DNA of 64,000 nucleotides, taken from assembly GCA_964036665.1 (NCBI GenBank), contig OZ038528.1:1984001-2048000 (forward strand), read 5' to 3'. Position numbers and translations under genes: made by a program. The stretch is from Gordius sp. MW1 (lineage: Eukaryota; Nematomorpha; Gordioida; Gordea; Gordiidae). Positions 1-34,430 of the stretch are shown one piece after another; within the stretch, counting starts at the first letter, position 1; each line of letters begins with the position of its first letter. The notes beneath the pieces are model-generated. The model searched no databases. It was not told where the DNA came from and was given only the letters and a program-made list of their open reading frames with translations.

Positions 1-51
1 ATATAACTAGTTAAATTGCATAGCAATTAAAAGTAAACAACTTTTATTTAT

Positions 52-60
52 GTTTATTAT
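52..60. repeat. Possible 9-base target duplication flanking the palindrome (left)
   Basis: GTTTATTAT lies at 52-60 and again at 6091-6099. Nine bases is the usual MULE target duplication. On the right there are about nine extra bases between the palindrome end and the repeat, and the DNA is AT-rich, so coincidence is possible. Confidence 0.35.
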
Positions 61-142
61 GGTTCCTAGGCTAAATCCCGAAAGCGCACAATCCCGAATT
101 TTAATGCTACACTTTTACGGCAATTAACATATGGTAAAAAAT

Positions 143-2369
143 ATGCAATCATATAATCAAGCTTTTAATGAATATTTGGTTGAGAGAACAAATCAAGATA
201 ATACAGAAAGTATAAGTAAGCTTAATATCTAAATATTTATAAATTATCTTTAGAATTTAAAAAGTCGAGTAGAAAAAATTTGATTCTGACCCATAAAGAC
301 TTGGATTATACCAAAATTAAAGATGGAAAACTTGGACAGGTGTATTACAAGTGCAGGAAATGTACTATATGTCATTGCCCAGGAAAGGGTATACTGAAGA
401 ATAGTAATTTCAAAGTCACAACTGAGCATTCTGAAAATTGTATTCAAGGTAACATAATACAGCTTTACTTATAAAATTTTAGCATCAAATGAAAAACTAA
501 GTCGAGTTATTACTGATAATTGCTTACTAGAACCTAATGATAAGACCCCTACACAGGGTAATGATCAACCAATCCCTGCACCAAGTAACATAATATAGCT
601 TTATTTATAAAATTTAGCATCAAATGAAAAACTAAATGGAACAAATACCACACTTGTTAAAAACATCTCTACAATTATAAGGGATCAACAAAGTAAAAAC
701 ATTTTATAAATTATTCTTAAGAAGTTGAAATTTTATTACTGAGAATTGTTACTAGATGCTAATGAGGAGACCCCTAAACAGGGTGATGATGAACCAACCC
801 CTGCGCTAGCTGAAAATTCACAAAGTAGATTTGTTTAGTTTTAATTAGTATAACCCCCAAATATTTTAGATATACAATTTATCCCATCCCAAAAAGGAAA
901 AACAATCTTGAGGCTCAATGATTATCTATATGTCGTTGACAAAACTACAAAAATTACAACTTACTATAGATGCAGAAATTCAAAATGTCCTTGCAGATTA
1001 ATATATTGTAAAAATATAGCTAAATTAAAAAACAATCATAACCATGAACCTGAAACTGATGAGATTCAATATTTAGTGACAAAGTATAAATTAAAGGAGG
1101 CCATTAATAATAATCCTTTGGAATCAATATCAAAGGTAATTTTAACATATTTAAAATCAGGGAATCATTAATCCAATTAGGTATACAATGATGTACTTTA
1201 CCAAAGACGTGAAGAAGTGGAAGATATATGGCAATATCCACATGCTCTACCATCTTTTAAGTCAATGAAACGAACAATGAAGAGAACATTGCATAAAAAT
1301 AGACCCAAAATTCCAAGAACTATTGAAGAGATAATATTGCCCCTAGACTGCCACTATCTGAAGAATGGAACTCCCTTTTTATTAGAAAATTTGGACAATA
1401 GCTTGTTTATATTTGGAACACCTAAATTTTTGAAGATTATGTGTGATGCCAACAAAGTTTATTCAGATGGAACCTTCTATATAACCCCTGACCTTTTTTA
1501 TCAAGTACATAAACTAAACTTTATATTCACACATTTTAGGTGTACACTATTCATGTTGTTTATAAGAACCACATGATACCAACAATTTATGGTATTCTCC
1601 CCAATAAATTTTCAAAGACATACGTAAAATTTCTTACAAGCCTTAGACAAGTGTGCAGTTCTATAGGACTTACATTTAATCCTATGTTTTGGCAAGTGGA
1701 TTTTGAGATGGCTTCCATTAAAGCCCTAAAAATCATATTCCCTGACATTATAATTCAAGGTAAAATTTATACATTATGTAGTAAAATAAATTCTTACTAG
1801 GTTGCTACTTCCACTTCTCCCAGGCTGTAATTGGCAAAGCTAAGAAATTGGGCCTTGCTAAACTATACATTGAAGACAAAACAATCAGAACAGTTATCAA
1901 GGAAATATGCAATACACCATATCTCAGGAAAACAGATGTTGATATAGTTTATAACAAATGTATGACTTCCTCAAAAAATCTCAATAATGTCAATTTGAAA
2001 AGATTTTTGAGATACGTTAAAAATGTTTGGGTGGATGATAATGCAAAATTTCCATATAATTTATGGCAAAAGTATGAAGCTCCTGGTATGAGTACTAATA
2101 ACCATCTGGAAGGATTTCATAATGCCATGAAGAAATTAGTAAAGCAGCCACATCCAAATATTTATAGTTTTATCCAAACTTTAAAAGAACACCAAAGGAA
2201 TATGGAAACAAAAATTATACAAATAAACAATGGCAATATTTTATATCAAGTTCAAAGAAAGCTGGAAGCTAAAGCCCAAAGAATTAGGTGTTTACAATTA
2301 CATTATAAAAGAGATGAAATAGATTGTTTTGAATTTTTAGATTCCATTTGTAATTATATTAATATGTAA
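143..2369 (+). CDS. MULE (Mutator-like) transposase with two FLYWCH fingers, left-arm copy
   Basis: The exons I read are 143-215, 254-448, 870-1135, 1181-1504, 1540-1759 and 1801-2369. They keep frame throughout and give 548 residues. Four of the five introns are 35-45 bases with GT-AG ends; the second (449-869) is longer. Exon 2 holds a first FLYWCH-type zinc finger (Cys pairs, then His and Cys). Exon 3 holds a second, with the paired Cys and the HNH end. The MULE domain follows: DGTF (Asp about 273), VDFE (Asp about 339), CYFHF, and NNHLEGFHN (Glu about 462), the expected DDE acidic triad. An AATAAA lies at 2373-2378 just after the stop. The protein would bind the element ends and catalyse cut-and-paste transposition in the nucleus. 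Intron 2 contains further coding-like segments (around 500-590), so extra or alternative exons are possible. Confidence 0.85.
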
Positions 2370-2985
2370 ATCAATAAACTCTATTAAGACTGCATTGTTT
2401 GTAGATATAGTGTACTAAATGGTTTATTGCATAAATTTATAATTAATATTTGAAGACATTAGTGTACTAAATTGTATAAATTAAACAACTTAAATGAGAT
2501 TATTACATAAGTAAATTGTAAAGGGTGTACTAAATGGTTTATTGCATAAATTTATAATTAATATTTGAAGAGATTAGTGTACTAAATTGTATAAATTTAA
2601 CAATATAAATGTGATTATTACATAAGTAAATTGTAAAGGTTCCACCCAAATATAGCTCTTGAGTACATAATACCCAAACATTATTGTATACCTAATAGGA
2701 TTAATGATTCCCTGATTTTAAATACGTTAAAATTACCTTAGATATTGATTCCAAACGATTATTATTAATGGCATCCTTTAATTTATACCTTGTCACTAAA
2801 TATTAATACTCATCAGTGATCTGTAAATAAAGCTATATTATGTTACTTGGTGCAGAGGTTAATTAAATGTGATTCTTACATAAGTAAATTGTAAAGGGGC
2901 ACCCAAATCTTGCTCTTGATTATGGATAAAACTTTAAAATTAAAAAACATATGGAAATTTGAAAATCGTAGCAGTAGCATTATTG

Positions 2986-3017
2986 CTAAATCCCGAAAAG
3001 GCACAATCCCGAAGCTA
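2986..3017. mobile_element. Palindrome loop consisting of a MULE terminal inverted repeat
   Basis: The unpaired loop begins CTAAATCCCGAAAAGGCACA and ends CCCGAAGCTA. It differs from the outer terminal repeat at 71-98 by two bases in 28. On the minus strand it is the 3' end of the right-hand transposon. The left-hand copy stops exactly where its own 3' terminal repeat should begin. Confidence 0.85.
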
Positions 3018-3633
3018 CAATAATGCTACTGCTACGATTTTCAAATTTCCATATGTTTTTTAATTTTAAAGTTTTATCCATAATCAAGAGCAAGATTTGG
3101 GTGCCCCTTTACAATTTACTTATGTAAGAATCACATTTAATTAACCTCTGCACCAAGTAACATAATATAGCTTTATTTACAGATCACTGATGAGTATTAA
3201 TATTTAGTGACAAGGTATAAATTAAAGGATGCCATTAATAATAATCGTTTGGAATCAATATCTAAGGTAATTTTAACGTATTTAAAATCAGGGAATCATT
3301 AATCCTATTAGGTATACAATAATGTTTGGGTATTATGTACTCAAGAGCTATATTTGGGTGGAACCTTTACAATTTACTTATGTAATAATCACATTTATAT
3401 TGTTAAATTTATACAATTTAGTACACTAATCTCTTCAAATATTAATTATAAATTTATGCAATAAACCATTTAGTACACCCTTTACAATTTACTTATGTAA
3501 TAATCTCATTTAAGTTGTTTAATTTATACAATTTAGTACACTAATGTCTTCAAATATTAATTATAAATTTATGCAATAAACCATTTAGTACACTATATCT
3601 ACAAACAATGCAGTCTTAATAGAGTTTATTGAT

Positions 3634-5996
3634 TTACATATTAATATAATTACAAATGGAATCTAAAAATTCAAAACAATCTATTTCATCTCTTTTATAA
3701 TGTAATTGTAAACACCTAATTCTTTGGGCTTTAGCTTCCAGCTTTCTTTGAACTTGATATAAAATATTGCCATTGTTTATTTGTATAATTTTTGTTTCCA
3801 TATTCCTTTGGTGTTCTTTTAAAGTTTGGATAAAACTATAAATATTTGGATGTGGCTGCTTTACTAATTTCTTCATGGCATTATGAAATCCTTCCAGATG
3901 GTTATTAGTACTCATACCAGGAGCTTCATACTTTTGCCATAAATTATATGGAAATTTTGCATTATCATCCACCCAAACATTTTTAACGTATCTCAAAAAT
4001 CTTTTCAAATTGACATTATTGAGATTTTTTGAGGAAGTCATACATTTGTTATAAACTATATCAACATCTGTTTTCCTGAGATATGGTGTATTGCATATTT
4101 CCTTGATAACTGTTCTGATTGTTTTGTCTTCAATGTATAGTTTAGCAAGGCCCAATTTCTTAGCTTTGCCAATTACAGCCTGGGAGAAGTGGAAGTAGCA
4201 ACCTAGTAAGAATTTATTTTACTACATAATGTATAAATTTTACCTTGAATTATAATGTCAGGGAATATGATTTTTAGGGCTTTAATGGAAGCCATCTCAA
4301 AATCCACTTGCCAAAACATAGGATTAAATGTAAGTCCTATAGAACTGCACACTTGTCTAAGGCTTGTAAGAAATTTTACGTATGTCTTTGAAAATTTATT
4401 GGGGAGAATACCATAAATTGTTGGTATCATGTGGTTCTTATAAACAACATGAATAGTGTACACCTAAAATGTGTGAATATAAAGTTTAGTTTATGTACTT
4501 GATAAAAAAGGTCAGGGGTTATATAGAAGGTTCCATCTGAATAAACTTTGTTGGCATCACACATAATCTTCAAAAATTTAGGTGTTCCAAATATAAACAA
4601 GCTATTGTCCAAATTTTCTAATAAAAAGGGAGTTCCATTCTTCAGATAGTGGCAGTCTAGGGGCAATATTATCTCTTCAATAGTTCTTGGAATTTTGGGT
4701 CTATTTTTATGCAATGTTCTCTTCATTGTTCGTTTCATTGACTTAAAAGATGGTAGAGCATGTGGATATTGCCATATATCTTCCACTTCTTCACGTCTTT
4801 GGTAAAGTACATCATTGTATACCTAATTGGATTAATGATTCCCTGATTTTAAATATGTTAAAATTACCTTTGATATTGATTCCAAAGGATTATTATTAAT
4901 GGCCTCCTTTAATTTATACTTTGTCACTAAATATTGAATCTCATCAGTTTCAGGTTCATGGTTATGATTGTTTTTTAATTTAGCTATATTTTTACAATAT
5001 ATTAATCTGCAAGGACATTTTGAATTTCTGCATCTATAGTAAGTTGTAATTTTTGTAGTTTTGTCAACGACATATAGATAATCATTGAGCCTCAAGATTG
5101 TTTTTCCTTTTTGGGATGGGATAAATTGTATATCTAAAATATTTGGGGGTTATACTAATTAAAACTAAACAAATCTACTTTGTGAATTTTCAGCTAGCGC
5201 AGGGGTTGGTTCATCATCACCCTGTTTAGGGGTCTCCTCATTAGCATCTAGTAACAATTCTCAGTAATAAAATTTCAACTTCTTAAGAATAATTTATAAA
5301 ATGTTTTTACTTTGTTGATCCCTTATAATTGTAGAGATGTTTTTAACAAGTGTGGTATTTGTTCCATTTAGTTTTTCATTTGATGCTAAATTTTATAAAT
5401 AAAGCTATATTATGTTACTTGGTGCAGGGATTGGTTGATCATTACCCTGTGTAGGGGTCTTATCATTAGGTTCTAGTAAGCAATTATCAGTAATAACTCG
5501 ACTTAGTTTTTCATTTGATGCTAAAATTTTATAAGTAAAGCTGTATTATGTTACTTGGTGCAGGGATTGGTTGATCATTACCCTGTGTAGGGGTCTTATC
5601 ATTAGGTTCTAGTAAGCAATTATCAGTAATAACTCGACTTAGTTTTTCATTTGATGCTAAAATTTTATAAGTAAAGCTGTATTATGTTACCTTGAATACA
5701 ATTTTCAGAATGCTCAGTTGTGACTTTGAAATTACTATTCTTCAGTATACCCTTTCCTGGGCAATGACATATAGTACATTTCCTGCACTTGTAATACACC
5801 TGTCCAAGTTTTCCATCTTTAATTTTGGTATAATCCAAGTCTTTATGGGTCAGAATCAAATTTTTTCTACTCGACTTTTTAAATTCTAAAGATAATTTAT
5901 AAATATTTAGATATTAAGCTTACTTATACTTTCTGTATTATCTTGATTTGTTCTCTCAACCAAATATTCATTAAAAGCTTGATTATATGATTGCAT
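3634..5996 (-). CDS. MULE transposase with two FLYWCH fingers, right-arm copy
   Basis: This is the mirror image of the left-arm gene, converging on it. The exons are 5996-5924, 5885-5691, 5133-4868, 4822-4499, 4463-4244 and 4202-3634, read right to left. The translations of the open segments are the same as in the left arm, including the FLYWCH fingers, the DGTF and DFE acidic motifs, CYFHF and NNHLEGFHN. Intron 2 is 136 bases longer because of a tandem duplication (5415-5686). This copy, unlike the left one, has both terminal repeats: the outer end at about 6068 and the inner end in the palindrome loop at 2986-3014. It is therefore the structurally complete MULE. Confidence 0.85.
5415..5686 (-). 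repeat. 136-base tandem duplication in the right palindrome arm
   Basis: Two adjacent copies (5415-5550 and 5551-5686) of a segment that is single in the left arm (about 453-590). Each copy includes coding-like sequence reading TDNCLLEPNDKTP and a GTAACATAATA segment. It falls inside intron 2 of the transposase, or possibly duplicates an alternative exon. It is the only large asymmetry between the arms. Confidence 0.9.
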
Positions 5997-6081
5997 ATTT
6001 TTTACCATATGTTAATTGCCGTAAAAGTGTAGCATTAAAATTCGGGATTGTGCGCTTTCGGGATTTAGCCTAGGAACCATA

Positions 6082-7106
6082 CGGGATATAGTTTATTATA
6101 TAATAGATAATTTAACAAATCTTATATTATAACACACCGAGGGAGATAGAGATGAGGGGTGGGGCACCTCTTATGCATTAATTCAAAAAATAACACAGCG
6201 AGGGAGATAGAGATGAGGGGTGGGGCAACTCTTTCTCATGCATTAATTTAAAAAAGCGATAACCTAATATAACCAATGCAAATAGATAGGGAGGGTAACG
6301 GACGACGGACGACGGACACCAAAAAACGAGCCCATAAATTGCATAGCAATTAATTAAAGGTCGCTGTCAAAGCAAATCTAATTATTATTATAACTAACAA
6401 ACCAGAAAATCACCCTAATGCACTCTTACCTTTTATAGCAATCTGTTGTATATTGGTGATTCATTCTTTAAGAGGAAAGATGTTGTATATGTGAATACGT
6501 ATTTTTGTATATCATTTTCTACAGATTATTATATTGCTATAATTATGTATTTTAATATTGTAAGCAAAATCCGAGTTGATAATTACCATATGTTTTTATC
6601 TACTTAATTAATCTATCTTTCTTTTGTTCATATATACATTCCCCACCCCGGCCCTAGTTATTATTTCTCCTAATCTATAATATATCATTAAACTATCTTT
6701 ATCATTACTTAATAAATGATTATCCTTAGATTAAATATGATTGAGATCTAATACAATCTTAAATCCAATCTCTCAAATTAACGAATTCATTTAACAAATG
6801 TATTTAATTAATACCGAAACTAATTTTGAAAGTAAGACCTTATAATTTTTCTTCGTTTGAAGATTGAACTCAACACTCAGTGAAGATATGGTTAAAGAGA
6901 ACCTGTATCCATTCTAACGTTATAATACAAATCTACCTATAAAATTCCATTTAATTGTATTATTTTATTTATAAAAACAATTTTGTTTTAATCTGAAGAT
7001 GTAATTATTATAATAATTATAATTATTTTTTAACTCCCTCTAATGCTCCCGTTAATAAATTTCTTTAAATGTATAACATCGTTTTTACAATTCCAATTAG
7101 GTTTAC
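6082..7106. other. MCM4 intron sequence, no exon seen
   Basis: The stretch holds two copies of a 57-base unit containing GAGGGAGATAGAGATGAGGG (about 6137-6250). It also has a copy of a dispersed repeat end (6296-6352: GACGACGGACGACGG, then GAGCCCATAAATTGCATAGC). A third segment at about 6443-6505 matches an element end at 34826-34890. I searched the minus strand for the next MCM4 exon and found none. Confidence 0.6.
6091..6099. repeat. Possible 9-base target duplication flanking the palindrome (right)
   Basis: Right-hand partner of the GTTTATTAT at 52-60; the same caveat applies. Confidence 0.35.
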
Positions 7107-33639: not shown

Positions 33640-34430
33640 ATATCAACCCCAGGCACGTTCGCTGAACCAGATGCAGGGTTTAGCCACGTACATGTAGATC
33701 TCGACCCTTACCACCTTCTAACAGCCACATTTATATTTTTATTGCTGTTGATCGTTTCACCCGATGGCCGATTGCAATTCCCATTAATGACGCAACAGCC
33801 GAAACCCTTACACGCACATTTTTGACACACTGGATAGCAAACTTTGGTGTTTCAGCTACATTAACCACGGACCGGGGACCCCAATTCCAATCAACCCTTT
33901 TTAAACATCTATTTTACTTGGTTACCATCATATCACTATGACAGCTTACCATCCACAAGCCAATGGGATGGTAGAGCGTTTTCACCGACAGCTCAAAAGT
34001 TCAATTACTTGTAATCCTAAGGATTCGCAACACCGTCAAGGAAGACCTCGCCTATTCAAGCGCTGAGCTGGGATACGGTACTCCTTTACGACTCCCAGGA
34101 GATTTTTTACAACGGTCGGATTGCGACCTAAACGCCGCCGATTACATCCAACGCCTTCGACAGCAGTTCGATGATGTCCGATTTACACCTTCCAGACCAT
34201 CGAACATCAAACAACAAATTTCCGAAAATTTATTTACATCCACCCATATTTTTATTAGGACTGACCCGCTACGAAAAGCCTTGAATCCTCCCTATGAAGG
34301 ACCTTTCAAAGTGATTGAAAAGCATCCTAAATTTTTTATCATAGACCACAATGGGAGGAAAGACACTATCTCAATTGATCGATTAAAGCCAGCTTTCCTC
34401 GAGCCTAAGGTTGATAACCCGAATTAACCA
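33640..34430 (+). pseudogene. Gypsy-type integrase and pol C-terminus, broken
   Basis: Readable blocks in different frames are IFIAVDRFTRWPIAIPINDA, NFGVSATLTTDRGPQFQS, MTAYHPQANGMVERFHRQLK and a tail with PPYEGPFKVIEKH and TISIDRLKPAFLE. These are the integrase core DDE region and the C-terminal GPF/Y-type module of Ty3/gypsy elements. At least two frameshifts and stops separate them. Confidence 0.85.

What the first reader, a model, noticed from the sequence alone, without database searches (positions are those of the whole stretch)
58..6081. Six-kilobase near-perfect palindrome carrying two intact convergent MULE transposase genes
Both arms encode the same spliced 548-residue transposase with FLYWCH fingers and DDE motifs. 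Palindromes of this size are normally unstable. If real, it is either a compound transposon or a recent inverted duplication, with possible double-stranded RNA production from convergent transcription. A chimeric assembly is the main alternative.
Basis: partly seen in the sequence, partly recalled or inferred. Interest (0 to 1): 0.8.

Follow-up and report, generated by a model that had tools for sequence, protein, structure and literature searches.

The report
Tail-to-tail twin of a jumping gene
A six-kilobase DNA palindrome turns out to be two slightly different copies of a young, intact jumping gene fused tail to tail, in a genome where jumping genes close to this one repeatedly end up as mirror-image pairs, nearly always head to head.

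Summary
The palindrome is real. Arm A (61-2985) and arm B (3018-6078) agree at 2925 of 2925 aligned bases around a 32-nt loop, but B has one extra 136-nt repeat. Each arm is a copy of a 2967-bp Mutator-like transposon with an open spliced transposase gene (FLYWCH and MULE domains). The arms differ in ancestry: B's extra repeat is shared with a copy on another contig. A keeps its 8-bp target duplication, and related repeats show the empty site. B carries a tail-GTAT-head junction with no other exact match in the assembly, as if a circular copy had been captured at A's broken tail. This speaks against a folded assembly or simple inverted duplication. Five of eight loci of this element are inverted pairs (four head-to-head; the window tail-to-tail), against 0 of 69 other paired-end elements examined. 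Among 147 related transposase places, neighbours within 25 kb form 17 head-to-head, 1 tail-to-tail and 1 direct pair; random placement gives 0.6 head-to-head. Head-to-head Mutator pairs, Mutator circles and the silencer Mu killer are known. The recurrence and orientation bias I did not find in print.

The parts
53..60 (.). left target site duplication TTTATTAT of element A
   Evidence: Same 8 bases at 6092-6099; the undivided site TTATGTTTATTATATAATAG is present in related repeats in L020 and L026
61..2985 (+). element A, head outward; last 42 nt (tail inverted repeat) missing
   Evidence: Same as single copies L013 (100%) and L014 (99.97%) elsewhere; alignment
131..2369 (+). transposase gene of A, 8 introns, 638 aa (own gene model)
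   Evidence: GT-AG introns, open frame; Pfam FLYWCH and MULE
2986..3017 (-). 32-nt loop = tail inverted repeat belonging to B
2986..6078 (-). element B, inverted, head outward; terminal 9 nt of its tail displaced to 6083-6091
3634..6008 (-). transposase gene of B, 9 introns, 672 aa (own gene model)
5388..5659 (-). two tandem copies of a 136-nt intron+exon unit, one more than in A; the same extra copy is in L016
   Evidence: D1; identical 1421-nt prefix of B and L016
6079..6091 (.). ATAC + GGGATATAG: read on the other strand, tail end CTATATCCC, 4-nt spacer GTAT, then B's head: a tail-head junction as in a circular copy
   Evidence: only exact match in the genome
6092..6099 (.). right target site duplication TTTATTAT

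Best explanation
The window holds two copies of one young autonomous Mutator-like transposon joined tail to tail. Shown: copy A inserted with an 8-bp target duplication; B shares a structural variant with another copy and not with A; the centre lost 42 nt of A's tail; B is permuted by 9 nt and bears a tail-GTAT-head junction. Inferred: transposase cut A's tail, and a circular copy of B was captured in the break in inverse orientation. Inferred: the locus is one outcome of a wider habit in this genome, in which active MULEs insert next to the promoter end (head) of gene-bearing copies in inverted orientation, after which cutting at the facing ends erodes and fuses them into palindromes.
For: Arm difference shared with L016. 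One target duplication outside the pair and a matching empty site in related repeats. Tail-N(0-30)-head junction found once in the genome by exact pattern, at the window's right end. L011: two head-to-head copies 30 bp apart, each with its own 8-bp duplication (AATACTAG; CTATAAAA); L012: left copy with its own duplication; L015: second copy about 300 bp inside the head of a first copy that keeps TTTTAAAA on both sides; L010: head of one copy abuts the interior of the other. 5 of 8 loci with a near-identical transposase-bearing body are inverted pairs against 0 of 69 other paired-end elements, Fisher p = 2.8e-6. 17 head-to-head: 1 tail-to-tail: 1 direct among neighbours under 25 kb, random mean 0.64 head-to-head, maximum 5 in 2000 shuffles. 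Family F1 repeats the picture: 7 head-to-head pairs among 24 copies at 99-100%; two pairs have both heads with gaps of 85 and 244 bp, one has both heads plus a head fragment between, four are fused with a truncated or missing head.
Against: The circle is inferred from one junction with a 4-nt spacer; prokaryotic relatives show 6-10 bp (PMC3942029, passages). The 136-nt gain could have happened twice. L010 and the right copy of L012 lack matching duplications, L015's second copy lost its head, and L016's duplication is imperfect, so few pairs are two clean insertions. Both arms of one F1 pair (C7) have one TAA stop that no other F1 copy has (positions not compared), which points to local copying or gene conversion there. 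The wider Pfam search for MULEs shows 12 head-to-head, 4 tail-to-tail and 1 direct pair under 15 kb, so the orientation bias is strong but not absolute. The random model spreads copies evenly; real clustering would raise the number of pairs, though not favour one orientation.
Confidence: 0.6

Rival explanations
1. Inversion of a direct tandem: A and B once lay head-to-tail with a 4-nt spacer, and transposase-mediated alternative transposition inverted B.
For: Undoing the inversion gives A-tail-GTAT-B-head in order. Inversions of single elements are among the rearrangements seen at a head-to-head VANDAL21 pair (PMC12312487, section 12 read).
Against: No other exact tail-to-head junction within 30 bp exists in the assembly, and direct pairs are rare (1 of 19).
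Confidence: 0.2
2. Fold-back inverted duplication: a broken copy primed on itself and copied its own arm.
For: Near-perfect arms and an asymmetric loop; in family F1 the C4 pair has an 82-nt loop that is itself head sequence, with arms meeting there.
Against: In the window the arms differ by a 136-nt repeat shared with another locus and both outer flanks lie on one target site; fold-back copying would not supply the second flank. L011 has two separate target duplications.
Confidence: 0.08
3. Assembly or library chimera.
For: Perfect palindromes are typical artefacts of folded reads (general knowledge), and no reads could be examined here.
Against: Arm difference, different outer flanks, target duplication with an empty-site relative; in the places scored, pair orientation differs by superfamily (MULE mainly head-to-head; piggyBac 6 tail-to-tail, 2 head-to-head), which a blind artefact would not give.
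Confidence: 0.05
4. A Mu-killer-like silencer: convergent or read-through transcription of the palindrome makes hairpin RNA that silences the family. This concerns function and can hold together with the origin given above.
For: Same layout as maize Mu killer: both outer ends derive from the transposase-gene end, with two inverted copies of the gene between (PMC3440606, passages). Among the five inverted pairs of its own element it is the only tail-to-tail one, so the only one with convergent genes.
Against: No RNA data; both genes are open here, whereas Mu killer holds partial copies; 39 equal-length non-autonomous copies, of which the 17 fetched loci differ little, speak for recent activity.
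Confidence: 0.15

Closest known systems
Head-to-head VANDAL21 pair in Arabidopsis (PMC12312487, passages and section 12 read)
   Same: Two MULEs head to head with a short spacer (about 200 bp there), a hotspot of spacer deletion, inversion and circle formation
   Different: One such region described there; here 17 head-to-head neighbours (16 within about seven families by my grouping, 1 across families), and the window itself is tail to tail
Mu killer of maize (PMC3440606, passages seen, abstract among them)
   Same: Inverted duplication of a Mutator transposase gene with both outer ends from the gene-side terminus
   Different: Mu killer has partial genes and a demonstrated silencing effect; here both genes are open from end to end and silencing is untested
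Circular forms of the Mutator superfamily: IS256, TnGBS, maize Mu1, K. lactis alpha3 (PMC3942029, passages seen)
   Same: Circular forms; in the prokaryotic ones tail and head are joined through a few bases
   Different: Here only an integrated trace of such a junction, with 4 bases instead of 6-10
Phantom/Muta MULEs of animals (PMC6446971, PMC5225508, PMC3169594, passages seen)
   Same: FLYWCH + MULE transposase, 8-9 bp target duplications
   Different: Membership by phylogeny not tested; gene here has 8-9 introns in my model, and copies lie in inverted pairs
Double P elements in Drosophila (recalled; one search found no paper)
   Same: Local inverted insertions of one element beside another, unstable
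   Different: Other superfamily; recalled only

Membership tests
Mutator-like element (MULE) | MULE-type DDE transposase | tested here: met
   PF10551 35.1 bits against cut-off 27.6
Mutator-like element (MULE) | 8-11 bp target site duplication | tested here: met
   8 bp in L011 (both copies), L015 (first copy), L029 and around the window pair; 9 bp in L014; imperfect or lost in L010, L013, L016 and the right copy of L012
Mutator-like element (MULE) | terminal inverted repeats | tested here: met
   29-nt arms 93% complementary at the ends of single copy L013
Phantom (animal MULEs) | N-terminal FLYWCH finger with MULE domain | tested here: met
   PF04500, two stretches
Phantom (animal MULEs) | placement in the Phantom clade | not tested
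   no reference transposases were fetched
Mu killer-type silencer | inverted duplication of the transposase gene, both outer ends from the gene's 5' side | tested here: met
Mu killer-type silencer | hairpin or antisense RNA and silencing of family members | not testable with these tools
   no RNA data
Compound transposon (palindrome moving as one unit) | target duplication at both outer ends of the pair and further identical composites | tested here: not met
   the five pairs of this element have different junctions; the window's duplication is offset by 13 nt on the right
Circular MULE intermediate | tail-spacer-head junction | tested here: met
   one integrated junction, TATATCCC-GTAT-GGTTCC
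Circular MULE intermediate | free circle | not testable with these tools
   no reads or DNA

The most novel reading that the evidence does not exclude
MULEs in this genome obey an orientation rule: a moving gene-bearing copy is steered to the promoter end of a gene-bearing copy and inserts head to head, so that autonomous copies become self-paired palindromes while non-autonomous copies with the same ends do not. The rare tail-to-tail product, as in the window, would be a Mu-killer-like off-switch. Transposon families would then carry a built-in route to self-pairing and possibly self-silencing.
Probability: 0.28. Interest if true: 0.72.

Novelty: new variant of a known kind. Interest (0 to 1): 0.5.

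Why it matters
Large palindromes are usually suspected of being artefacts or accidents. Here they recur with a strongly preferred orientation, in several transposon families, and in the first family only at copies that carry the gene. That makes two questions testable in one genome: what steers a DNA transposon next to its own kind, and whether such pairs seed RNA silencing, as Mu killer did in maize.

Tried and rejected
Compound transposon moving as a unit: rejected for this element because no two pairs share a junction. Intramolecular replicative transposition or sister-chromatid transposition: these predict an inverted target duplication beside the facing head; L011 has direct duplications on each copy instead (the predictions are my own reasoning). 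Chance neighbours: rejected. A general property of all DNA transposons here: not supported, but the controls are thin. hAT (150 places) has 1 head-to-head, 2 tail-to-tail and 2 direct pairs under 15 kb, but only 150 of 3413 candidates were scored, so partners may be missed. piggyBac (116 places; 116 of 671 candidates scored) has 2, 6 and 7, the direct ones in one array. DDE_3 (81 places; all 108 candidates scored) has 1, 3 and 3. So piggyBac has inverted pairs too, in the other orientation. Viral contigs: no match to the short patterns. The 82-nt centre of one F1 pair, first taken for target DNA, proved to be element-head sequence, so the spacer lengths printed are not host spacers.

Literature. 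Searches returned no paper. One search listed 20 of 23 papers; I opened PMC12312487, PMC6446971 and PMC3169594 of these and not the others. From I opened PMC3440606, PMC5225508 and PMC3942029. Searches were seen as listings only.

Limits of counts. One search used 90 of 100 listed head places and all 100 listed tail places (whole counts 155 and 160 with up to 3 mismatches; the lists show exact places only); the ten heads left out lie beyond the end of the tail list. The 69 are the 74 paired ends minus the five of 2967 bp; two of the 69 are longer than the autonomous element, and most of the 69 were not opened. In one search, 147 of 152 matches were entered; second fragments of three places were dropped and the rest were not listed; itself 150 of 619 candidates were scored. 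In one search six second fragments of piggyBac places were dropped (116 of 122). Family grouping of the pairs is mine, by identity to the probe, open-frame length, without a tree.
Full report
Observation. The window is G000:C2:1984001-2048000 of a 211.8-Mb genome in 12 contigs. The inverted repeat is real: 449-2985 against 3018-5554 at 100% with 32 nt between, and 58-615 against 5524-6081 at 100%. Element ends are 61 and 6078. A and B align with 2925 identities, no mismatch and 136 gap positions.

What the unit is. Single copies elsewhere (L013, L014) show the unit: head GGTTCCTAGGCTAAATCCCG..., tail ...CGGGATTTAGCCTATATCCC, 2967 bp from end to end where both ends are intact. L014 has a 9-bp target duplication, a non-autonomous copy (L029) an 8-bp one. 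The gene has 8 short GT-AG introns in A and 9 in B, giving 638 and 672 residues in my models. Pfam gives FLYWCH (42.2 bits, two stretches) and MULE (35.1 bits), both above cut-off. The D, D and E of the catalytic triad are my reading of motifs (SDGTFY, QVDFEMA, LEGFHNAM), not a call. The extra 136 nt in B is one intron plus one 34-residue exon.

The two arms are not copies of one another. B and the copy L016 on contig C8 share the extra 136-nt unit and are identical over their first 1421 bases, while B departs from the single copy L013 after 535. A has the common form. Independent gain of the same duplication is possible but less simple.

How the window was put together. Left of A lies TTTATTAT; the same 8 bases lie at 6092-6099. 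Related repeats in L020 and L026 carry the undivided site, so this is A's target duplication. In the centre A lacks its last 42 nt, and B's tail begins 9 nt short. Those 9 nt (GGGATATAG) lie instead beyond B's head, after four bases (ATAC). Read on the other strand this is tail end, GTAT, head. The inserted piece is thus one unit length, permuted, as if a circle had been opened 9 nt from its tail end. The exact pattern tail-N(0-30)-head occurs once in the genome, here. Circles are reported for IS256, for maize Mu1 and for a yeast MULE (PMC3942029, passages). The circle is an inference.

Other pairs of the same element. Eight loci hold a near-identical transposase-bearing body: the window, L010, L011, L012, L015 (inverted pairs) and L013, L014, L016 (single; L016 with an internal deletion). 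L011: two copies 30 bp apart, head to head, each with its own 8-bp duplication. L012: 26 bp apart; the left copy has its duplication, the right copy none. L015: the second copy lies about 300 bp inside the head of the first, whose duplication TTTTAAAA is on both sides; the second copy has lost its head and the first has an internal rearrangement. L010: one head abuts position 764 of the other copy. Junctions and flanks differ, so these are separate events. In contrast, of 74 elements with paired ends in the listings, 39 have exactly 2555 bp. One of these, read in full, has no open frame of 60 codons and shares 273 bp of head and 414 bp of tail with the autonomous element. Set against L029, the 16 other loci of this form fetched with 1.5 kb from the head show 0 or 1 substitution and, in three of them, gaps. 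None of the 69 elements other than the five of 2967 bp lies in an inverted pair: 5 of 8 against 0 of 69, one-sided Fisher p = 2.8e-6.

Genome-wide. A 189-residue probe from the last exon gave 152 matches (150 of 619 candidates scored). Among 147 places entered, neighbours under 25 kb are 17 head-to-head, 1 tail-to-tail (the window) and 1 direct; random placement gives a mean of 0.64 head-to-head and at most 5 in 2000 shuffles. Sixteen of the 17 join like with like, in about seven families by my grouping; one joins L013 to another family. Family F1 has 24 copies at 99-100% and seven head-to-head pairs. C7 and C3 (21.13 Mb) have both heads, with gaps of 85 and 244 bp; C1 has both heads with a further head fragment between; C4, C2, C8 and C3 (21.99 Mb) are fused with truncated or missing heads. 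Both arms of the C7 pair have one TAA stop, not seen in the other F1 copies; the two positions were not compared. An older pair, L018, has arms only 66% alike.

Wider searches. Under 15 kb, Pfam MULE places (128) show 12 head-to-head, 4 tail-to-tail and 1 direct; hAT (150 of 3413 candidates scored) 1, 2 and 2; piggyBac (116) 2, 6 and 7, the direct ones in one array; DDE_3 (81) 1, 3 and 3. The head-to-head excess is thus clear for MULEs; piggyBac leans the other way; the hAT control sees only a small part.

Mechanism, with steps marked. Shown: in L011, two independent insertions close to a head in inverted orientation; elsewhere eroded and fused heads; in the first family, pairs at gene-bearing loci only, within the places examined. 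Inferred: the target is the active 5' end of the transposase gene, since VANDAL MULEs are said to favour 5' UTRs (PMC12312487, section 12), and the incomer is a local copy. This would explain why non-autonomous copies neither attract nor form pairs. Why the orientation is head to head is not explained. Fusion fits the spacer deletions seen at the VANDAL21 pair.

Possible consequence. In the window the two genes converge on a 32-nt loop. Mu killer has the same layout with partial genes. Whether RNA is made is unknown.

Species. The end of C1 is TTAGGG-type telomere, and the first 3000 bases of C12 (14,798 bases) look mitochondrial to me. That suggests an invertebrate animal, perhaps a bryozoan; this is recall, not a test.

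Noticed in passing
G000:C8:22608808-22611688 and C3:956887-959767: Two piggyBac pairs, tail to tail, with the same spacing (1798) and mirrored open-frame lengths 552/559: possibly one palindromic piggyBac unit that moved.
   Followed up: no
window 1055-1194 and 2678-2817 (and 576-607 / 2824-2855): The 3' region of the element carries an inverted 140-nt copy of one of its own exon-intron stretches, 93% complementary, and a 32-nt inverted piece of an intron region: a built-in antisense fragment.
   Followed up: partly
L029:1501-3023 with L059: A 2555-bp non-autonomous form (39 of 74 paired elements) shares only its ends with the autonomous element.
   Followed up: partly
L030/L031 (C1:16.216 Mb) and L017:2416-2769: Direct partial duplications of the head (163 and 81 bp) in front of a non-autonomous copy.
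   Followed up: no
C3:10604109-10604672 and L013: The single copy L013 lies head to head, 6.5 kb between last exons, with a MULE of another family (38% identity).
   Followed up: no
L013:7325-7440: Tail of L013 lacks its terminal CCC and part of the expected target duplication, like an imperfectly repaired cut.
   Followed up: no
G000:C1:7008645-7096915: Array of piggyBac-like genes in direct order with repeated spacings (4468, about 10257).
   Followed up: no
window 33975-34427: 150-codon open frame resembling the C-terminal part of a Gypsy-type polyprotein (recalled likeness).
   Followed up: no
window 1-60 and L009:3541-4100: Upstream of the palindrome lies a run of near-identical repeats of about 55-66 bp, also found in L020 and L026; the palindrome sits in one of them.
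   Followed up: partly
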